This document shows, piece after piece, positions 27,304-39,029 of a DNA stretch of 64,000 nt. The stretch spans positions 558,001 through 622,000 of the forward strand of contig NZ_OZ032147.1 in NCBI RefSeq assembly GCF_964026435.1, written 5' to 3'. Within the stretch, counting starts at the first letter, position 1. Each line of letters opens with the position of its first letter. A program made the position numbers and the translations under genes. The notes under the pieces are model-generated. The model did no database searches. It worked only from the letters and a program-made list of their open reading frames with translations, and had not been told where the DNA came from. The DNA comes from Rickettsia endosymbiont of Gonocerus acuteangulatus. GTDB lineage: Bacteria; Pseudomonadota; Alphaproteobacteria; Rickettsiales; Rickettsiaceae.

Positions 27304-28960
27304 TTAAATTTCTTGGAAATCCCATAGTTTTTTATATAAGCTTTTTTGATTTTGGATTAATGTGTTGTGTGTTCCTTCCTCAATAATTTTACCTTTATCT
27401 AAAACAATAATTCTATCCATATGTTTTAGAGTAGAGAGACGATGTGCAATAGCAATAACAGTCTTTTTATGATCTGCAATTAAAACACTAAGGCTTCTTT
27501 GAATCATTTTTTCTATTTGACCATCAAGTGATGAAGTTGCTTCATCAAGAATAAGGATAGGAGAGTTTTTTAGAATAGCTCTTGCAATTGCAATTCTTTG
27601 TCTTTGTCCCCCTGATAATTTTATACCTCTTTCTCCAACACAAGTATTGTATTGATTAGGTAGATTTATAATAAACTCATGTATAAAAGCTTTCTTACTG
27701 GCTTTAATCACTTCTTCATCTGAAGCATCTGGTTTGCCATATTTTATATTTTCCATAAGAGTTCTATTAAATAACAGAATATCTTGAGGAATGACTGCAA
27801 TATTTTCTCTCAATGAATCTTGTGTCACATTATCAATATTTTGGTTATCAATAAGAATTTGTCCTTTAGTACTTTTAAAATACTTCAATAAAAGATTTAT
27901 TAAAGAAGATTTTCCAACACCTGACTTGCCAACTAATCCTACTTTTTCACCTGCCTTTATAACCAAGTTAAGATCACTAAAAATAGCATCAGTTTTATCA
28001 TAACCAAAACTAATATTTTTAAATTCTATTTTTGGTTCTTTAATTATAAATTGTTGTACATTTTTTCTATCTAAATTCTGTTGTGGCACATATAAAACGG
28101 TAAGAGCACTTTTTAGCTCACCTACTACATGTGTAAAATCCTGTAAAGAGATTGTTGTATGCCAAATATCTTCTATCATAATTAAGGAAATACCAAATAC
28201 AAAAGCAAAGTCTCCAATAGAAATTAATTCATGCATTCTTAAATGAATCATGTAAAATAAGATAAATGCAAACATAATAAAGTAGAGAATCCCACTAATG
28301 ATTTGAATAACAAAATTATGTTTATAAACTTGAATTTGCTTTGGAATAAAATCATTAAATAATTTGTTATCTAATGCTTGCATCTCTCTTTTTTTTGCAG
28401 AAAATAATATAATAGAAAAGATATTAGTAATTTTATCTGCAATTTGTCCAATTAAATTATGTCTACTTTCTGTTTCTTCAAAAGATAATTGGTTTAGTTT
28501 TATTGAAAGTTTATACATGACAGAAACATATATAGCACTCCAAATAAAGATAAATAATCCTAGATTAGGATGTACCATAAAAAGTACAAAAAAATTAATA
28601 ATTATTGTTAAGATTTTTGCTAGTAATCCATGATGAATTTCAGCAAACAAACGATCATGACAATCTAAAATGCTTTTTATTTTACTGCTAATAACTCCAG
28701 AAAAATTATCTTGAAAAAAAGAGTAAGAATGGTGTTGAATATAATCATAAGTTTTTAGAAAAATTGATCTTCTAACATAAGGTATCGTTTTCCATTCTAT
28801 TATATCACTTATTCTCCATATAATTGTTAAAGATAATTGTGTTGTAAGAAAAAGGAAGATAGGAAAAATTGTTAGCAACGGAAGTAAAATGATACAGAGC
28901 AACGGATAAAAATTGATACAGTATTAAAGTAATATCTTCTGAATAAGGAGGTAATGAATA

Positions 28961-29989
28961 ATGATAATACTGGAGCAAATAATGGAAATAAAAATATTGA
29001 ATAAACATGGTAAAAGCTTAAGAAGTATAGCAAGAGAAGTAGGTGCATCAGTAAATACAGTACGTAAATATTTAAAATATGATGGTAACCCTAAATATAA
29101 AGATAGGCCAAAGTTGGTAACAAAGCTTGCCCCATATAAAGACTACTTGAGTAACAGAATAAAATCTGCCCATCCTGTATCACTACCTGGTACTGTACTG
29201 TTTCAAGAGATAAAGGAGTTGGGTTACACAGGCGGGATGACCCAACTTAGGGATTATTTAAGGAGTATAAAGCCTGCAGCTAAACAGGAGGATATGATAA
29301 GATTTGAGACTGCTTCTGGCAAACAGATGCAAGTTGACTGGATTGAATTTCGTAAGGGGAAAAGTCCTCTATCAGCTTTTGTGGCTACATTAGGATTTAG
29401 TCGAGCAAGCTATGTAGAATTTGTTACTAATGAGAAGCTTGTAACATTAATAGAATGCCATAAGCGGGCATTTGAATATTTTGGCGGAGTGCCAGAAGAA
29501 GTACTGTATGACAACATGAAGACAGTAATACTGGATAGGGATACATATGGTCCTGGCATACACCGCTTTAATAAAGGTATGCTGGATTTTGCCAAACATT
29601 ACAGTTTCCGATTAAAAGTGTGTAGGCCTTATAGAGCAAAAACTAAGGGCAAGGTTGAGCGATTTAACAGATATATAAGAGAAAGCTTTTATAATCCATT
29701 AGCAACAAAATTAAAAACTGCAGAGTTAGTGTTGGATGTGGATACTGCAAATTCAGAGGTACTAAAATGGTTGCGTGATACTGCGAATCGGCGTGTGCAT
29801 GGAACAACAGGCGAAATACCTGCAGAAAGATTAAAGTTTGAAAGGAGCAATCTTCAGCCACTACCATTGGATTATAGTGGTAGTCATCCTGCAGCACTAG
29901 AGATTATGGAAGATAAAAGGGAACAATTTTCTACAGTTTCCTTACAACATTCCCTCTGCATATACCAAAGTATACTGGAGGCATTATGA
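28961..29989 (+). CDS. istA: IS21 transposase IstA
   Basis: 342 aa. N-terminal helix-turn-helix ([21 protein letters not shown]), rve-type catalytic core with DDE in QVDWIEF, LYDNMKT and [10 protein letters not shown], and a C-terminal binding region. Stop overlaps the istB start (ATGA), the typical coupled arrangement. Short for IstA but apparently complete. Confidence 0.92.
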
Positions 29990-36768: not shown

Positions 36769-37866
36769 TTAGTTCTTTTTTAATTCTTGTTCTAAGATAT
36801 TAACTATTTTCTTTGCTGCGTAACCATCTCCATAAGGAAAACATATTTTTGACATTACAGCTAGCAAATCCGGATTTTTTAATAACCTATTGCAGATATT
36901 TATAATATCAACTGCTTTTGTTCCTACTAATATAGCTATGTTATTTTCAATTACTTCTGGTCTTTCAGTGATATCTCTAACAATAAGTGCAGGCTTTCCA
37001 ATAAATGTTACTTCTTCTTGTATGCCCCCAGAATCAGTTATTACAAAAAGACATTCTTTTAGAAGCTTAATAAATGATATATGATTTATTGGTGAAATTA
37101 AATTAATATTACTTATATTTGATAATAATGTTTTTACATGTTCACTTATAGAAGGATTGGGGTGTAAACAGAACATTATGTTTATATCTAGAAATTGTTT
37201 CGCAATGTTACGTAAAGCATTACATACTTCTTTTAGTGGTTCGCCATAGTTTTCTCTTCTATGAATTGTAACTAAGATAAATTTAGTTTTATAATCTGGT
37301 TTTAATCCACATAATTTTTTATTTATAAGTCTTACTGCATCTATGGATGTATTACCTACTACCCAAATTTTATCAATTGGTACTCCTTCCTTAATAAGAT
37401 TAATTTTTGCTCGATTAGTTGGTGCAAAAAAATAAGTACTTAGTTTATCTATAAAACATCTATGTATCTCCTCAGGCCATGGTGAATATATGTTATCTGT
37501 TCGTAAACCTGCTTCAATATGTGCTACTGCTATCCCTGAATAAAAACTAGCAAGAGCTGCTACAAAAGCTGTTGTAGTATCTCCCTGAACAATAATTAAA
37601 TCTGGTCTTGACTTTTCTAATGTATTACTAAATCCTGACAACATATGTGTTGCACTGTGGCACAGAGATCCTTTGCTTTCTATAGATTGAAATTTATAAC
37701 TGACTTTAATGTTCATATCTGAAAAAACAGAATCAAGTAAAGACGTATGTTGTCCGGTCATACATATCTCATAAGAGAAATATTTATTATTTTCAAAAGC
37801 TGCAATGATAGGTGCAAGTTTTATTGCCTCAGGTCGTGTTCCTATTACTATCATTATTTTTTTCAT
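36769..37866 (-). CDS. wecB: UDP-N-acetylglucosamine 2-epimerase (non-hydrolysing)
   Basis: 365 aa. Family motifs: IMIVIGTRPEAIKLAPIIAAF, VQGDTTTAFVAALASFYSG with VAHIEAGLRTDN, VTIHRRENYGEPL, ITDSGGIQEEV. Interconverts UDP-GlcNAc and UDP-ManNAc in the cytoplasm. It overlaps wecC by four bases. Together they make UDP-ManNAcA, normally for enterobacterial common antigen or capsule. Intact. Confidence 0.93.
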   Translation of the reverse strand: MKKIMIVIGTRPEAIKLAPIIAAFENNKYFSYEICMTGQHTSLLDSVFSDMNIKVSYKFQSIESKGSLCHSATHMLSGFSNTLEKSRPDLIIVQGDTTTAFVAALASFYSGIAVAHIEAGLRTDNIYSPWPEEIHRCFIDKLSTYFFAPTNRAKINLIKEGVPIDKIWVVGNTSIDAVRLINKKLCGLKPDYKTKFILVTIHRRENYGEPLKEVCNALRNIAKQFLDINIMFCLHPNPSISEHVKTLLSNISNINLISPINHISFIKLLKECLFVITDSGGIQEEVTFIGKPALIVRDITERPEVIENNIAILVGTKAVDIINICNRLLKNPDLLAVMSKICFPYGDGYAAKKIVNILEQELKKN

Positions 37867-39029
37867 TTTATTAATACTCCAGTAAAATCAAGAAAAATTT
37901 TTTCATGAAACAAATAATTAGGTATATCTAAAAATTCATTATGAGCAACTAATACAACTATCATATCTACTTTTAGTAGCGTATCATTTATTGATTTTAT
38001 ATTTTTAACATATGGATCAAAAACAATAACATCAAATTCTTGTTTCAGGGTCTCAGTTATTATTATAGCCGGCGATTCTCTGGTATCAGGTACATTAGGT
38101 TTGTAAGTAAGACCCAAACAAGCTATAATGCGAACATTATTTTCTTTTGCTACTTTTTTTATTTTCTGAATTACCCAACTAGCTTTATTAATATTAACTT
38201 CCCTTGCTTTTAATATTAACTGGGCAAATTCCGATGCTGAGTGTGCCAAAAAATATGGATCTATAGCTATACAATGACCTCCAACTCCTGGACCTGGTTG
38301 TAAAATATTTACACGAGGATGTTTGTTCGCTAGACTAATGAGTTCATTTATATTCACATTAATATGATCGGCAATCATAGACAATTCATTAGCATAGGCA
38401 ATGTTAATATCGCGATAGGTATTTTCTGCTAACTTGACCGCTTCTGCTGTTTTTGAATCAGTTACTTCTATCTCACCATGAATAAATGATCTATAAAAAT
38501 CAGCTGCTCGTGTCCCAGATTGATTATCTATACCACCTACAATTCTATCATTATATATTAATTCAGAAAGAATATTACCTGGTAATATTCTTTCTGGACA
38601 ATAAGCTATAAATATATTAGAACAAACTATGCGAAGCCGTTTAGCCATCATCTCAGTCGTCCCTATAGGACATGTCGATTCAATAAGAATTAAATTATCA
38701 GTTTCAAGATACGGTATAATAGATTCAATCGCTGCACTTACGTAAGAGATATCTGGTTTATTTTCTAAATTTAGAGGAGTCTGTACAGTAATTATATAGA
38801 TATCGGAATGTTCAACCTTTGTTGATATTTTAAGATTTCTCTTACATATTCCTTTAATAAATAAATCCTTTAATGCTGTTTCATGAGTCATGTAATTAAC
38901 TGCATTGATTTTTGATACTACTTTTTTATCAATATCTACTCCAAGAACTGAATAACCAGAATTTGCTAAAATACACATAATGGGAAAACCTATATGACCT
39001 AAGCCTATAACACAAACTTTTTTATTCAT
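37863..39029 (-). CDS. wecC: UDP-N-acetyl-D-mannosamine dehydrogenase family
   Basis: 388 aa. NAD-binding Rossmann start VCVIGLGHIGFPIMCILANS, ESTCPIGTTEMM, catalytic Cys in GPGVGGHCIAIDPYFL, and the C-terminal GLTYKPNVPDTRESPA. Four-electron oxidation of a UDP-sugar to the uronate. Pairing with wecB favours ManNAc over Glc or GlcNAc as substrate; sequence alone cannot separate them. First gene of the six-gene minus-strand operon. Confidence 0.9.
   Translation of the reverse strand: MNKKVCVIGLGHIGFPIMCILANSGYSVLGVDIDKKVVSKINAVNYMTHETALKDLFIKGICKRNLKISTKVEHSDIYIITVQTPLNLENKPDISYVSAAIESIIPYLETDNLILIESTCPIGTTEMMAKRLRIVCSNIFIAYCPERILPGNILSELIYNDRIVGGIDNQSGTRAADFYRSFIHGEIEVTDSKTAEAVKLAENTYRDINIAYANELSMIADHINVNINELISLANKHPRVNILQPGPGVGGHCIAIDPYFLAHSASEFAQLILKAREVNINKASWVIQKIKKVAKENNVRIIACLGLTYKPNVPDTRESPAIIITETLKQEFDVIVFDPYVKNIKSINDTLLKVDMIVVLVAHNEFLDIPNYLFHEKIFLDFTGVLIK

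What the first reader, a model, noticed from the sequence alone, without database searches (positions are those of the whole stretch)
27304..39029. Cargo gene cluster for an exported sugar-derived compound with a radical SAM step
Six minus-strand genes run wecC-wecB-GT4-GT4/HAD-radical SAM-deacetylase, with start/stop overlaps or 2-base spacing except one 36-base gap. They are followed by a convergent ComB-like lipoprotein and an ABC exporter. Seen directly: motifs of each family and the tight spacing. Known: WecB/WecC make UDP-ManNAc and UDP-ManNAcA; radical SAM enzymes, deacetylases and glycosyltransferases act together in aminoglycoside-type pathways (NeoN-, NeoL-type steps). Inference: the cluster makes a small glycoside or surface glycan, possibly an antimicrobial. 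It lacks a cyclitol synthase and aminotransferase, so it is not a standard aminoglycoside set. It lies in a conjugative-element context, is unlike core Rickettsia genes, and six frames are still long despite decay all around.
Basis: partly seen in the sequence, partly recalled or inferred. Interest (0 to 1): 0.85.

Follow-up and report, generated by a model that had tools for sequence, protein, structure and literature searches.

The report
Symbiont sugar cassette with viperin-like enzyme
A set of genes that probably makes and exports an unusual sugar-based compound, built around a distant cousin of the antiviral enzyme viperin, sits in the same order in bacteria of very different groups that are thought to live mostly inside other cells; the copy in this Rickettsia is broken by two jumping genes.

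Summary
The cluster is real. wecC, wecB, a GT4 glycosyltransferase, a GT4-HAD phosphatase fusion, a radical SAM enzyme and a WbmS-type deacetylase run in one direction; a ComB-type phosphatase converges on them, and an ABC exporter follows. The core (GT4 to deacetylase plus convergent ComB) recurs in this order in 14 of the 15 carrier genomes found (the 15th contig ends inside the deacetylase): Rickettsia, other Rickettsiaceae, Holosporales/Paracaedibacter, Chlamydiota, Francisellaceae and two further records. It is patchy: 4 of 261 genomes sampled in the order. The radical SAM enzyme's nearest named family is viperin, but it scores half the curated cut-off; the 13 intact relatives aligned (of 14) keep viperin's iron-sulfur and basic residues yet have Leu where four prokaryotic viperins have Tyr. 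In this window an IS200-type element cuts the radical SAM gene and an IS21-type element cuts the exporter, so the pathway is probably dead here. Best reading: a mobile cassette for an exported amino-uronosyl glycoside, with a radical step on a phosphorylated nucleotide or nucleotide-sugar. A surface-glycan role is the main rival. The product is unknown. My paper searches showed no description.

The parts
37863..39029 (-). wecC-like UDP-N-acetylmannosamine dehydrogenase (would make UDP-ManNAcA)
   Evidence: TIGR03026 357 bits, cut-off 190; best named model NF008286 2.5e-118 but 395 bits under its cut-off of 459
36769..37866 (-). wecB, non-hydrolysing UDP-GlcNAc 2-epimerase
   Evidence: TIGR00236 393 bits, cut-off 210
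35675..36766 (-). GT4 glycosyltransferase
   Evidence: PF00534 1.5e-24
34041..35678 (-). GT4 glycosyltransferase fused to a HAD-IIB phosphatase
   Evidence: PF00534 3.6e-19 and PF08282 1.5e-13; D370, D372, K501, D523, D527 invariant in 10 of 10 aligned sequences
33270..34004 (-). radical SAM gene, viperin-like: native 5' piece (codons 1-245)
   Evidence: NF038283 6.3e-23 on the frame as found
32753..33267 (.). IS200-type element inside the radical SAM gene (bounds approximate, type by eye)
   Evidence: transposase frame 32826-33236 +; 39 further matches of about 530-550 bases in the own genome, a lower bound because only 40 of 231 candidates were scored; junctions
32587..32751 (-). radical SAM gene: native 3' piece
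   Evidence: 100% to codons 253-307 of the relative's gene; found also by the profile
31883..32593 (-). WbmS-type polysaccharide deacetylase
   Evidence: PF22537 4.9e-26; profile match to PDB 3hft WbmS 1.9e-15
31106..31900 (+). ComB-like (2-phosphosulfolactate phosphatase family) protein with an N-terminal lipoprotein-like signal
   Evidence: PF04029 5.9e-24; three PDB relatives of that family; lipobox read by eye
30874..31065 (-). ABC exporter gene: 5' piece
   Evidence: 97% to codons 1-64 of the relative's gene
28961..30786 (+). IS21-type genes (transposase and ATP-binding helper) inside the exporter gene
   Evidence: frames 28961-29989 and 29986-30786; 44-nt inverted ends, 80% complementary, at 28899-28942 and 30790-30833; IS21 type judged by eye from the two-gene layout
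27304..28902 (-). ABC exporter (MsbA-like, membrane domain plus ATPase), frame lacking its native start
   Evidence: PF00005, PF00664; native match 27307-28869

Best explanation
This is a copy, carried on a conjugative-type element, of an apparently undescribed and horizontally spread biosynthetic cassette of bacteria from mainly intracellular groups. Shown: the gene families, the conserved order and the two IS interruptions. Inferred: WecB and WecC turn UDP-GlcNAc into UDP-ManNAcA. The two GT4 enzymes build a short glycoside; the HAD domain fused to one of them removes a phosphate from the product, as in sucrose-phosphate synthase/phosphatase fusions (recalled). The WbmS-type enzyme frees an amine by deacetylation. 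The viperin-like radical SAM enzyme makes a radical change (a dehydration or another deoxygenating step) on a phosphorylated nucleotide, nucleotide-sugar or sugar-phosphate intermediate. The ComB-type protein removes another phosphate, in the Rickettsia type perhaps outside the cytoplasm, and the ABC protein exports the product. No lipid-carrier transferase, polymerase or ligase was recognised in the set, so a small soluble product is favoured over a polymer. In this strain the cassette is probably inactive.
For: Families. Same core order and orientation in 14 of 15 carrier genomes. Radical SAM and deacetylase are the best conserved proteins: mean pairwise identity 67% and 62% (13 sequences each), against 45-55% for the other six gene families (5 to 13 sequences each). 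17 of 17 (13 family members plus 4 annotated prokaryotic viperins) keep the CxxxCxxC cysteines, GGE, R137, K164, W198-K199, N245, M248, S251 and G259, and position 56 is Arg or Lys in 17 of 17. Window and Oxypoda-symbiont cassettes are 97-99% identical in DNA while methionyl-tRNA synthetase is 81% identical as protein. wecB over the cut-off in 13 of 15 carrier genomes. An exporter relative (30-97% identity) lies directly beside the set in 6 of 14 other loci.
Against: wecC/wecB do not stand before the core in L027 and L028 (L028 has a divergent wecB, 31%, on the other side), and wecB was not found in 2 of 15 genomes (G283, G433, which may be incomplete), so UDP-ManNAcA may not be essential. No exporter relative was seen in the stretches of L024, L043 and L044. 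WbmS and GT4 enzymes also serve O-antigens. ComB shows no evident signal peptide in most loci outside Rickettsia and its nearest relative (by eye), so outside activation cannot be general. The structure model of the radical SAM enzyme is only moderate (mean pLDDT 66.9) and fold comparison was not available.
Confidence: 0.5

Rival explanations
1. A surface-glycan modification locus: UDP-ManNAcA and the GT4 enzymes extend a lipid-linked or LPS sugar, the WbmS-type enzyme deacetylates it, the MsbA/PglK-like ABC protein flips it, and the radical SAM enzyme edits a sugar.
For: WbmS is named as an O-antigen enzyme (3hft title); WecB/WecC feed surface polysaccharides (recalled); the exporter's best NCBIfam model is MsbA, though under its cut-off (329 against 602 bits).
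Against: No initiating sugar-phosphate transferase, Wzx/Wzy or ligase recognised among the frames beside the set (13 of 20 frames of 24000-44000 scanned against Pfam; the rest judged by eye); a GT fused to a HAD phosphatase suggests a soluble phosphorylated acceptor; viperin-like enzymes are not known to me in O-antigen loci (recalled); patchy presence.
Confidence: 0.32
2. A prokaryotic viperin (pVip) antiphage gene that happens to lie among sugar genes and makes ddh-nucleotides.
For: Best hits are viperin models: NF038283 6.1e-26, nearly end to end, PADLOC pVip 3.4e-23.
Against: 91 and 88 bits against a cut-off of 180, while an annotated pVip scores 270. Family and the four pVips are separate groups in the tree, which has long branches. 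Tyr of 4 of 4 pVips is Leu in 13 of 13 family members, and Asn is His166. Fixed link to glycosyltransferases and a deacetylase.
Confidence: 0.08
3. An aminoglycoside-type cluster with NeoN/NeoL-like steps.
For: Same broad enzyme classes (radical SAM, deacetylase, glycosyltransferases, exporter).
Against: Radical SAM is viperin-like and the deacetylase WbmS-like; no cyclitol synthase or aminotransferase recognised beside the set (the rest of the genome was not searched for them); none of its biosynthetic families is in the 15-gene R. buchneri table except general ones, a glycosyltransferase-like and ABC genes.
Confidence: 0.03
4. A cofactor-like or sulfonate pathway led by the ComB relative (coenzyme M-type chemistry), with the sugar genes as decoration.
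For: ComB family membership.
Against: No ComA or ComC frame recognised among the frames scanned; ComB is far below every equivalog cut-off listed (best 59.9 against 235 bits); it accompanies the sugar genes in 14 of 15 genomes, the 15th contig ending before it.
Confidence: 0.03

Closest known systems
Viperin / prokaryotic viperin (SAND, radical-SAM dependent nucleotide dehydratase)
   Same: Nearly end-to-end match of the radical SAM protein to the viperin model; CxxxCxxC, GGE, and basic residues that (recalled) hold the nucleotide's phosphates are conserved in 17 of 17.
   Different: Half the curated score; Tyr replaced by Leu and Asn by His in 13 of 13; separate group in the tree; sits in a glycosyltransferase-deacetylase cassette.
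WbmS polysaccharide deacetylase of the Bordetella O-antigen locus
   Same: Sequence family PF22537, profile match to PDB 3hft; the Bordetella origin is recalled.
   Different: The Bordetella locus was not compared gene by gene here.
WecB/WecC (UDP-ManNAc and UDP-ManNAcA synthesis)
   Same: WecB above the equivalog cut-off; WecC's best named match is UDP-ManNAc dehydrogenase.
   Different: WecC below that equivalog's cut-off (395 against 459 bits); paired here with the radical SAM core.
R. buchneri RAGE-A aminoglycoside (AGAB) cluster
   Same: Rickettsia, element-borne, biosynthesis cargo with exporters (passages; section 14 of PMC8770908).
   Different: Different genes: PIG-L deacetylase, aminotransferases, GMC oxidoreductase, 2-deoxy-scyllo-inosose synthase and others; no radical SAM, wecB, wecC or ComB gene in the table of 15.
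Sucrose-phosphate synthase/phosphatase fusions
   Same: GT4 plus HAD-IIB phosphatase in one protein (domains; comparison recalled).
   Different: No specific sequence match to them was tested; none was among the five PDB relatives listed.

Membership tests
Prokaryotic viperin (pVip / SAND) | Score above the NCBIfam NF038283 cut-off (180 bits) | tested here: not met
   91.2 and 88.0 bits for two intact relatives; an annotated pVip scores 270.5
Prokaryotic viperin (pVip / SAND) | Radical SAM motif and basic nucleotide-phosphate residues | tested here: met
   invariant, or basic at position 56, in 17 of 17 sequences; the role of the residues is recalled
Prokaryotic viperin (pVip / SAND) | Conserved active-site Tyr used in the reaction | tested here: not met
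   Tyr in 4 of 4 pVips, Leu in 13 of 13 family members; that this position is the catalytic Tyr is recalled; a conserved catalytic Tyr as such is stated in PMC8124187 passages
Prokaryotic viperin (pVip / SAND) | Makes ddh-nucleotides | not testable with these tools
   needs enzyme assay
Aminoglycoside cluster (NeoN/NeoL type) | NeoN-like radical SAM epimerase | tested here: inconclusive
   best models are viperin, then MoaA; no NeoN-named model among the 25 shown of 54, but I did not check that the library holds one
Aminoglycoside cluster (NeoN/NeoL type) | Cyclitol synthase and aminotransferase in the cluster | tested here: not met
   none in the 13 of 20 frames of 24000-44000 scanned against Pfam; the other 7 look like transposases or antisense frames by eye; rest of genome not searched
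WbmS-type deacetylase | Pfam PF22537 above gathering score | tested here: met
   92.3 against 27 bits
ComB phosphosulfolactate phosphatase | Pfam family PF04029 | tested here: met
   84.9 against 26.4 bits
ComB phosphosulfolactate phosphatase | Equivalog score (true ComB) | tested here: not met
   best 59.9 bits against a cut-off of 235
Conserved Rickettsia O-antigen locus | Present in all Rickettsia | tested here: not met
   radical SAM gene in 1 of 22 other same-genus genomes

The most novel reading that the evidence does not exclude
A viperin-derived radical enzyme has been recruited into a mobile pathway for an exported nucleoside- or nucleotide-sugar-type inhibitor, which intracellular symbionts of amoebae and arthropods trade among themselves across phyla and use against rivals or viruses inside the shared host cell.
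Probability: 0.17. Interest if true: 0.92.

Novelty: new variant of a known kind. Interest (0 to 1): 0.7.

Why it matters
Viperins are studied as immune enzymes. A related group fixed inside a glycan-type pathway, with the nucleotide-binding residues kept and the Tyr lost, would show the fold used for a different radical reaction. A biosynthetic cassette found in carriers from Rickettsiaceae to Chlamydiota and Francisellaceae, and absent from most genomes sampled in the same orders and classes, points to chemistry tied to the intracellular niche, where few natural products are known (recalled).

Tried and rejected
Viral contigs: four scans with the radical SAM, deacetylase, GT4-HAD and ComB alignments gave pattern matches but no relative. 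Phages: no match for the radical SAM protein. Plasmids: two distant radical SAM enzymes at 23-26%; no deacetylase; for GT4-HAD 31 records, none covering 80% of the query, the 12 listed covering under half; DNA matches in 24 records, the 20 listed all in the wecC/wecB part. NeoN/NeoL and pVip membership were considered and rejected as above. Fold comparison was attempted and is switched off.

Results against my reading. The tree of the five core proteins is star-like and does not reject the five Chlamydiota as one clade (AU p 0.54), so transfer between phyla rests on patchiness and high identity, not on tree shape. The methionyl-tRNA synthetase control is one gene. Its 29-34% partial matches in Chlamydiota, Francisellaceae, G635 and Paracaedibacter may be another type of that enzyme, so only the closer comparisons are clean. 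Those are mixed: radical SAM against synthetase identity is 99 against 81% (G015) and 87 against 72% (G182), but 69 against 66% (G026), 69 against 59% (G282) and 63 against 60% (G284), the last three giving little or no sign of recent transfer. One search's list and one search's exact peptide patterns are lower bounds.

Rows left out. L023 (near-copy of the window), L047, wec rows under 40% (L028 wecB, L051 wecC) and ABC rows under 36% (L028, L048), and the second ABC gene of L029. L047 and the window's broken copy. Alignments A4-A6 hold 10 sequences each, chosen from 15.
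Full report
What is there. The window lies in a 1.98 Mb single-contig genome. A same-genus genome, G015, holds an 11,648-base contig that is also the contig of the Rickettsia endosymbiont of Oxypoda opaca in the named collection (same length, 100% match), so the genus is Rickettsia. 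On the minus strand, wecC, wecB, GT4, GT4-HAD, radical SAM and a deacetylase follow each other from 39029 to 31883. A ComB-type gene converges on them by an 18-base tail overlap, and an ABC exporter lies beyond. Pfam and NCBIfam give: WecB over its cut-off; WecC as nucleotide-sugar dehydrogenase over its cut-off, with UDP-ManNAc dehydrogenase the best named model; GT4 twice, once fused to HAD-IIB; Radical_SAM; WbmS-like deacetylase PF22537; PF04029; ABC exporter. Surroundings include a MobA/MobL-plus-helicase gene, an HD-domain gene, two histidine kinases and a Dam-type methyltransferase, as in a RAGE (Rickettsiales amplified genetic element; mentioned in the papers, its usual cargo recalled).

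The copy is broken twice. The intact relative in the Oxypoda symbiont (L021/L023) matches the window at 97-99% DNA identity over the cassette, in three pieces. One break falls inside the radical SAM gene, where an IS200-type transposase gene sits; at least 39 similar copies lie elsewhere in the genome. The other falls inside the first part of the exporter gene, where an IS21-type pair sits with 44-nt inverted ends. The other six genes of the set read through. I therefore think that the pathway does not run in this strain.

The set is conserved. A profile from 7 intact radical SAM proteins (A3) and one genome-contig scan by exact peptide patterns (7 loci) gave 15 carrier genomes in all, the own one included. 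Counts, centres included: 4 of 261 genomes of the order, 6 of 232 of the Chlamydiota record's phylum, 2 of 42 of the Paracaedibacter record's order, 1 of 11 of the Francisellaceae record's order, 2 of 369 of its class, and 1 of 385 drawn from the own class, that one being the own genome. Some genomes fall in more than one draw. Thresholds were 1e-30, 1e-25 and 1e-18; no weaker intermediates appeared in the last two. At 1e-3, 4 of 95 nearer relatives matched, one of them weakly at 29%. In 14 of the 15 the core GT4, GT4-HAD, radical SAM, deacetylase and convergent ComB is present in that order (in the window with the IS inside, in L045 with GT4 cut by the contig end); in the 15th (L047) the contig ends inside the deacetylase. 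wecC and wecB stand before the core in 9 of 15, counting the window and L023 (whose wecC is cut by the contig end). L024 has one frame made of part of wecC and part of wecB; L028 has a divergent wecB on the other side; L027 has neither nearby; L051 has only a wecC-like piece at the contig end; L045 and L047 end too early. An exporter relative lies directly beside the set in the window and in 6 of the 14 others (L023, L025, L027, L029, L046, L048).

How it spread. The cassette DNA of the window and the Oxypoda symbiont is 97-99% identical, while methionyl-tRNA synthetase is 81% identical as protein: a recent transfer within the genus is the simplest reading. G182, another genus of the family, shows 87% for the radical SAM protein against 72% for the synthetase. 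G026 (69 against 66%), G282 (69 against 59%) and G284 (63 against 60%) give little or no such sign. For Chlamydiota the radical SAM protein is 62-68% identical to the window's, but the tree of the five core proteins is star-like and does not prove transfer between phyla. 'Rhizobium sp. Q54' is the record's own title for a 1.1 Mb genome; I doubt that name but did not resolve it. That the carriers live inside cells is inferred from their groups and genome sizes (1.1-4.0 Mb), not shown for each record.

The radical SAM enzyme. The best named family is viperin, aligned nearly end to end (6.1e-26; PADLOC pVip 3.4e-23 on the window frame). In the PDB, 3 of 7 hits are named viperin, the best one included, and the other 4 are unnamed radical SAM proteins; the profile gives 4 hits, 2 of them named viperin. 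Profile-profile comparison with four annotated prokaryotic viperins gives 99% probability over 222 columns. Yet the score is half the curated cut-off, the 13 family members form a group apart from the four pVips (with long branches), and two positions fixed in the four pVips differ in all 13: Tyr to Leu252 and Asn to His166. The three cysteines and R137, K164 and K199 are shared by 17 of 17. I recall these basic residues as phosphate contacts and the Tyr as the catalytic one; a conserved catalytic Tyr as such is mentioned in the passages of PMC8124187 that I read. The inference is a phosphorylated nucleotide-like substrate with changed chemistry. The AlphaFold model is moderate (pLDDT 66.9).

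The other enzymes. The deacetylase matches WbmS (3hft, 1.9e-15) and keeps D10, D12, H39, H56, H168 and H171 in 10 of 10 aligned sequences. The HAD domain keeps D370, D372, K501, D523 and D527 in 10 of 10, so it should be active. The ComB relative has a lipoprotein-like signal in the window, L023 and L043, a possible signal in L024 and L025, and none evident in the other loci (by eye; start codons uncertain).

Literature. The R. buchneri aminoglycoside cluster is a different gene set (table of 15 genes in section 14 of PMC8770908, read whole; passages of it, of PMC6300072 and of PMC9111745). Searches, seen as listings: R. buchneri with aminoglycoside or radical SAM (99 papers, 20 listed), viperin with Rickettsia (13), prokaryotic viperin, glycosyltransferase, radical SAM, ddhCTP (10), viperin structure terms (16, 96 and 120 papers, 10, 15 and 8 listed), WbmS terms (34, 8 listed), radical SAM with Rickettsiales and Chlamydiae terms (0), Paracaedibacter with radical SAM (1), and viperin-like with gene-cluster terms (288, 10 listed). 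None of the titles and abstract starts listed describes this cassette. Most subscription journals are not in that library. PMC9642334 and PMC10732462 were read in passages.

Verdict. A real, conserved and apparently undescribed cassette, broken in this window. The enzyme combination is new to me; the mechanism is inference and the product unknown.

Noticed in passing
window 32826-33236 and 40680-41036: IS200-type transposase genes of nearly the same protein sequence; one search lists 39 copies outside the cassette (40 of 231 candidates scored, so a lower bound).
   Followed up: partly
L024 5541-7241: In Ca. Paracaedibacter symbiosus the wecC and wecB genes are one frame that lacks the end of wecC and the start of wecB.
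   Followed up: no
window 30988-31023: Perfect 17-nt inverted repeat with a 2-nt loop in the 5' piece of the exporter gene; the relative matches this stretch on both strands.
   Followed up: no
L053 1-1341: An Anabaena plasmid viperin gene next to a deoxynucleoside kinase gene, a kind of neighbour known for pVips (recalled).
   Followed up: no
window 18076-19605: Methionyl-tRNA synthetase gene within a region that holds mobile-element genes; used as a control.
   Followed up: partly
window 56626-58608 and 11680-13569: Leucine-rich-repeat and ankyrin-repeat proteins near the element.
   Followed up: no
L028 (CAMBTM010000002.1): Record titled Rhizobium sp. Q54 belongs to a 1.1 Mb genome, small for that genus; the label may be wrong.
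   Followed up: no
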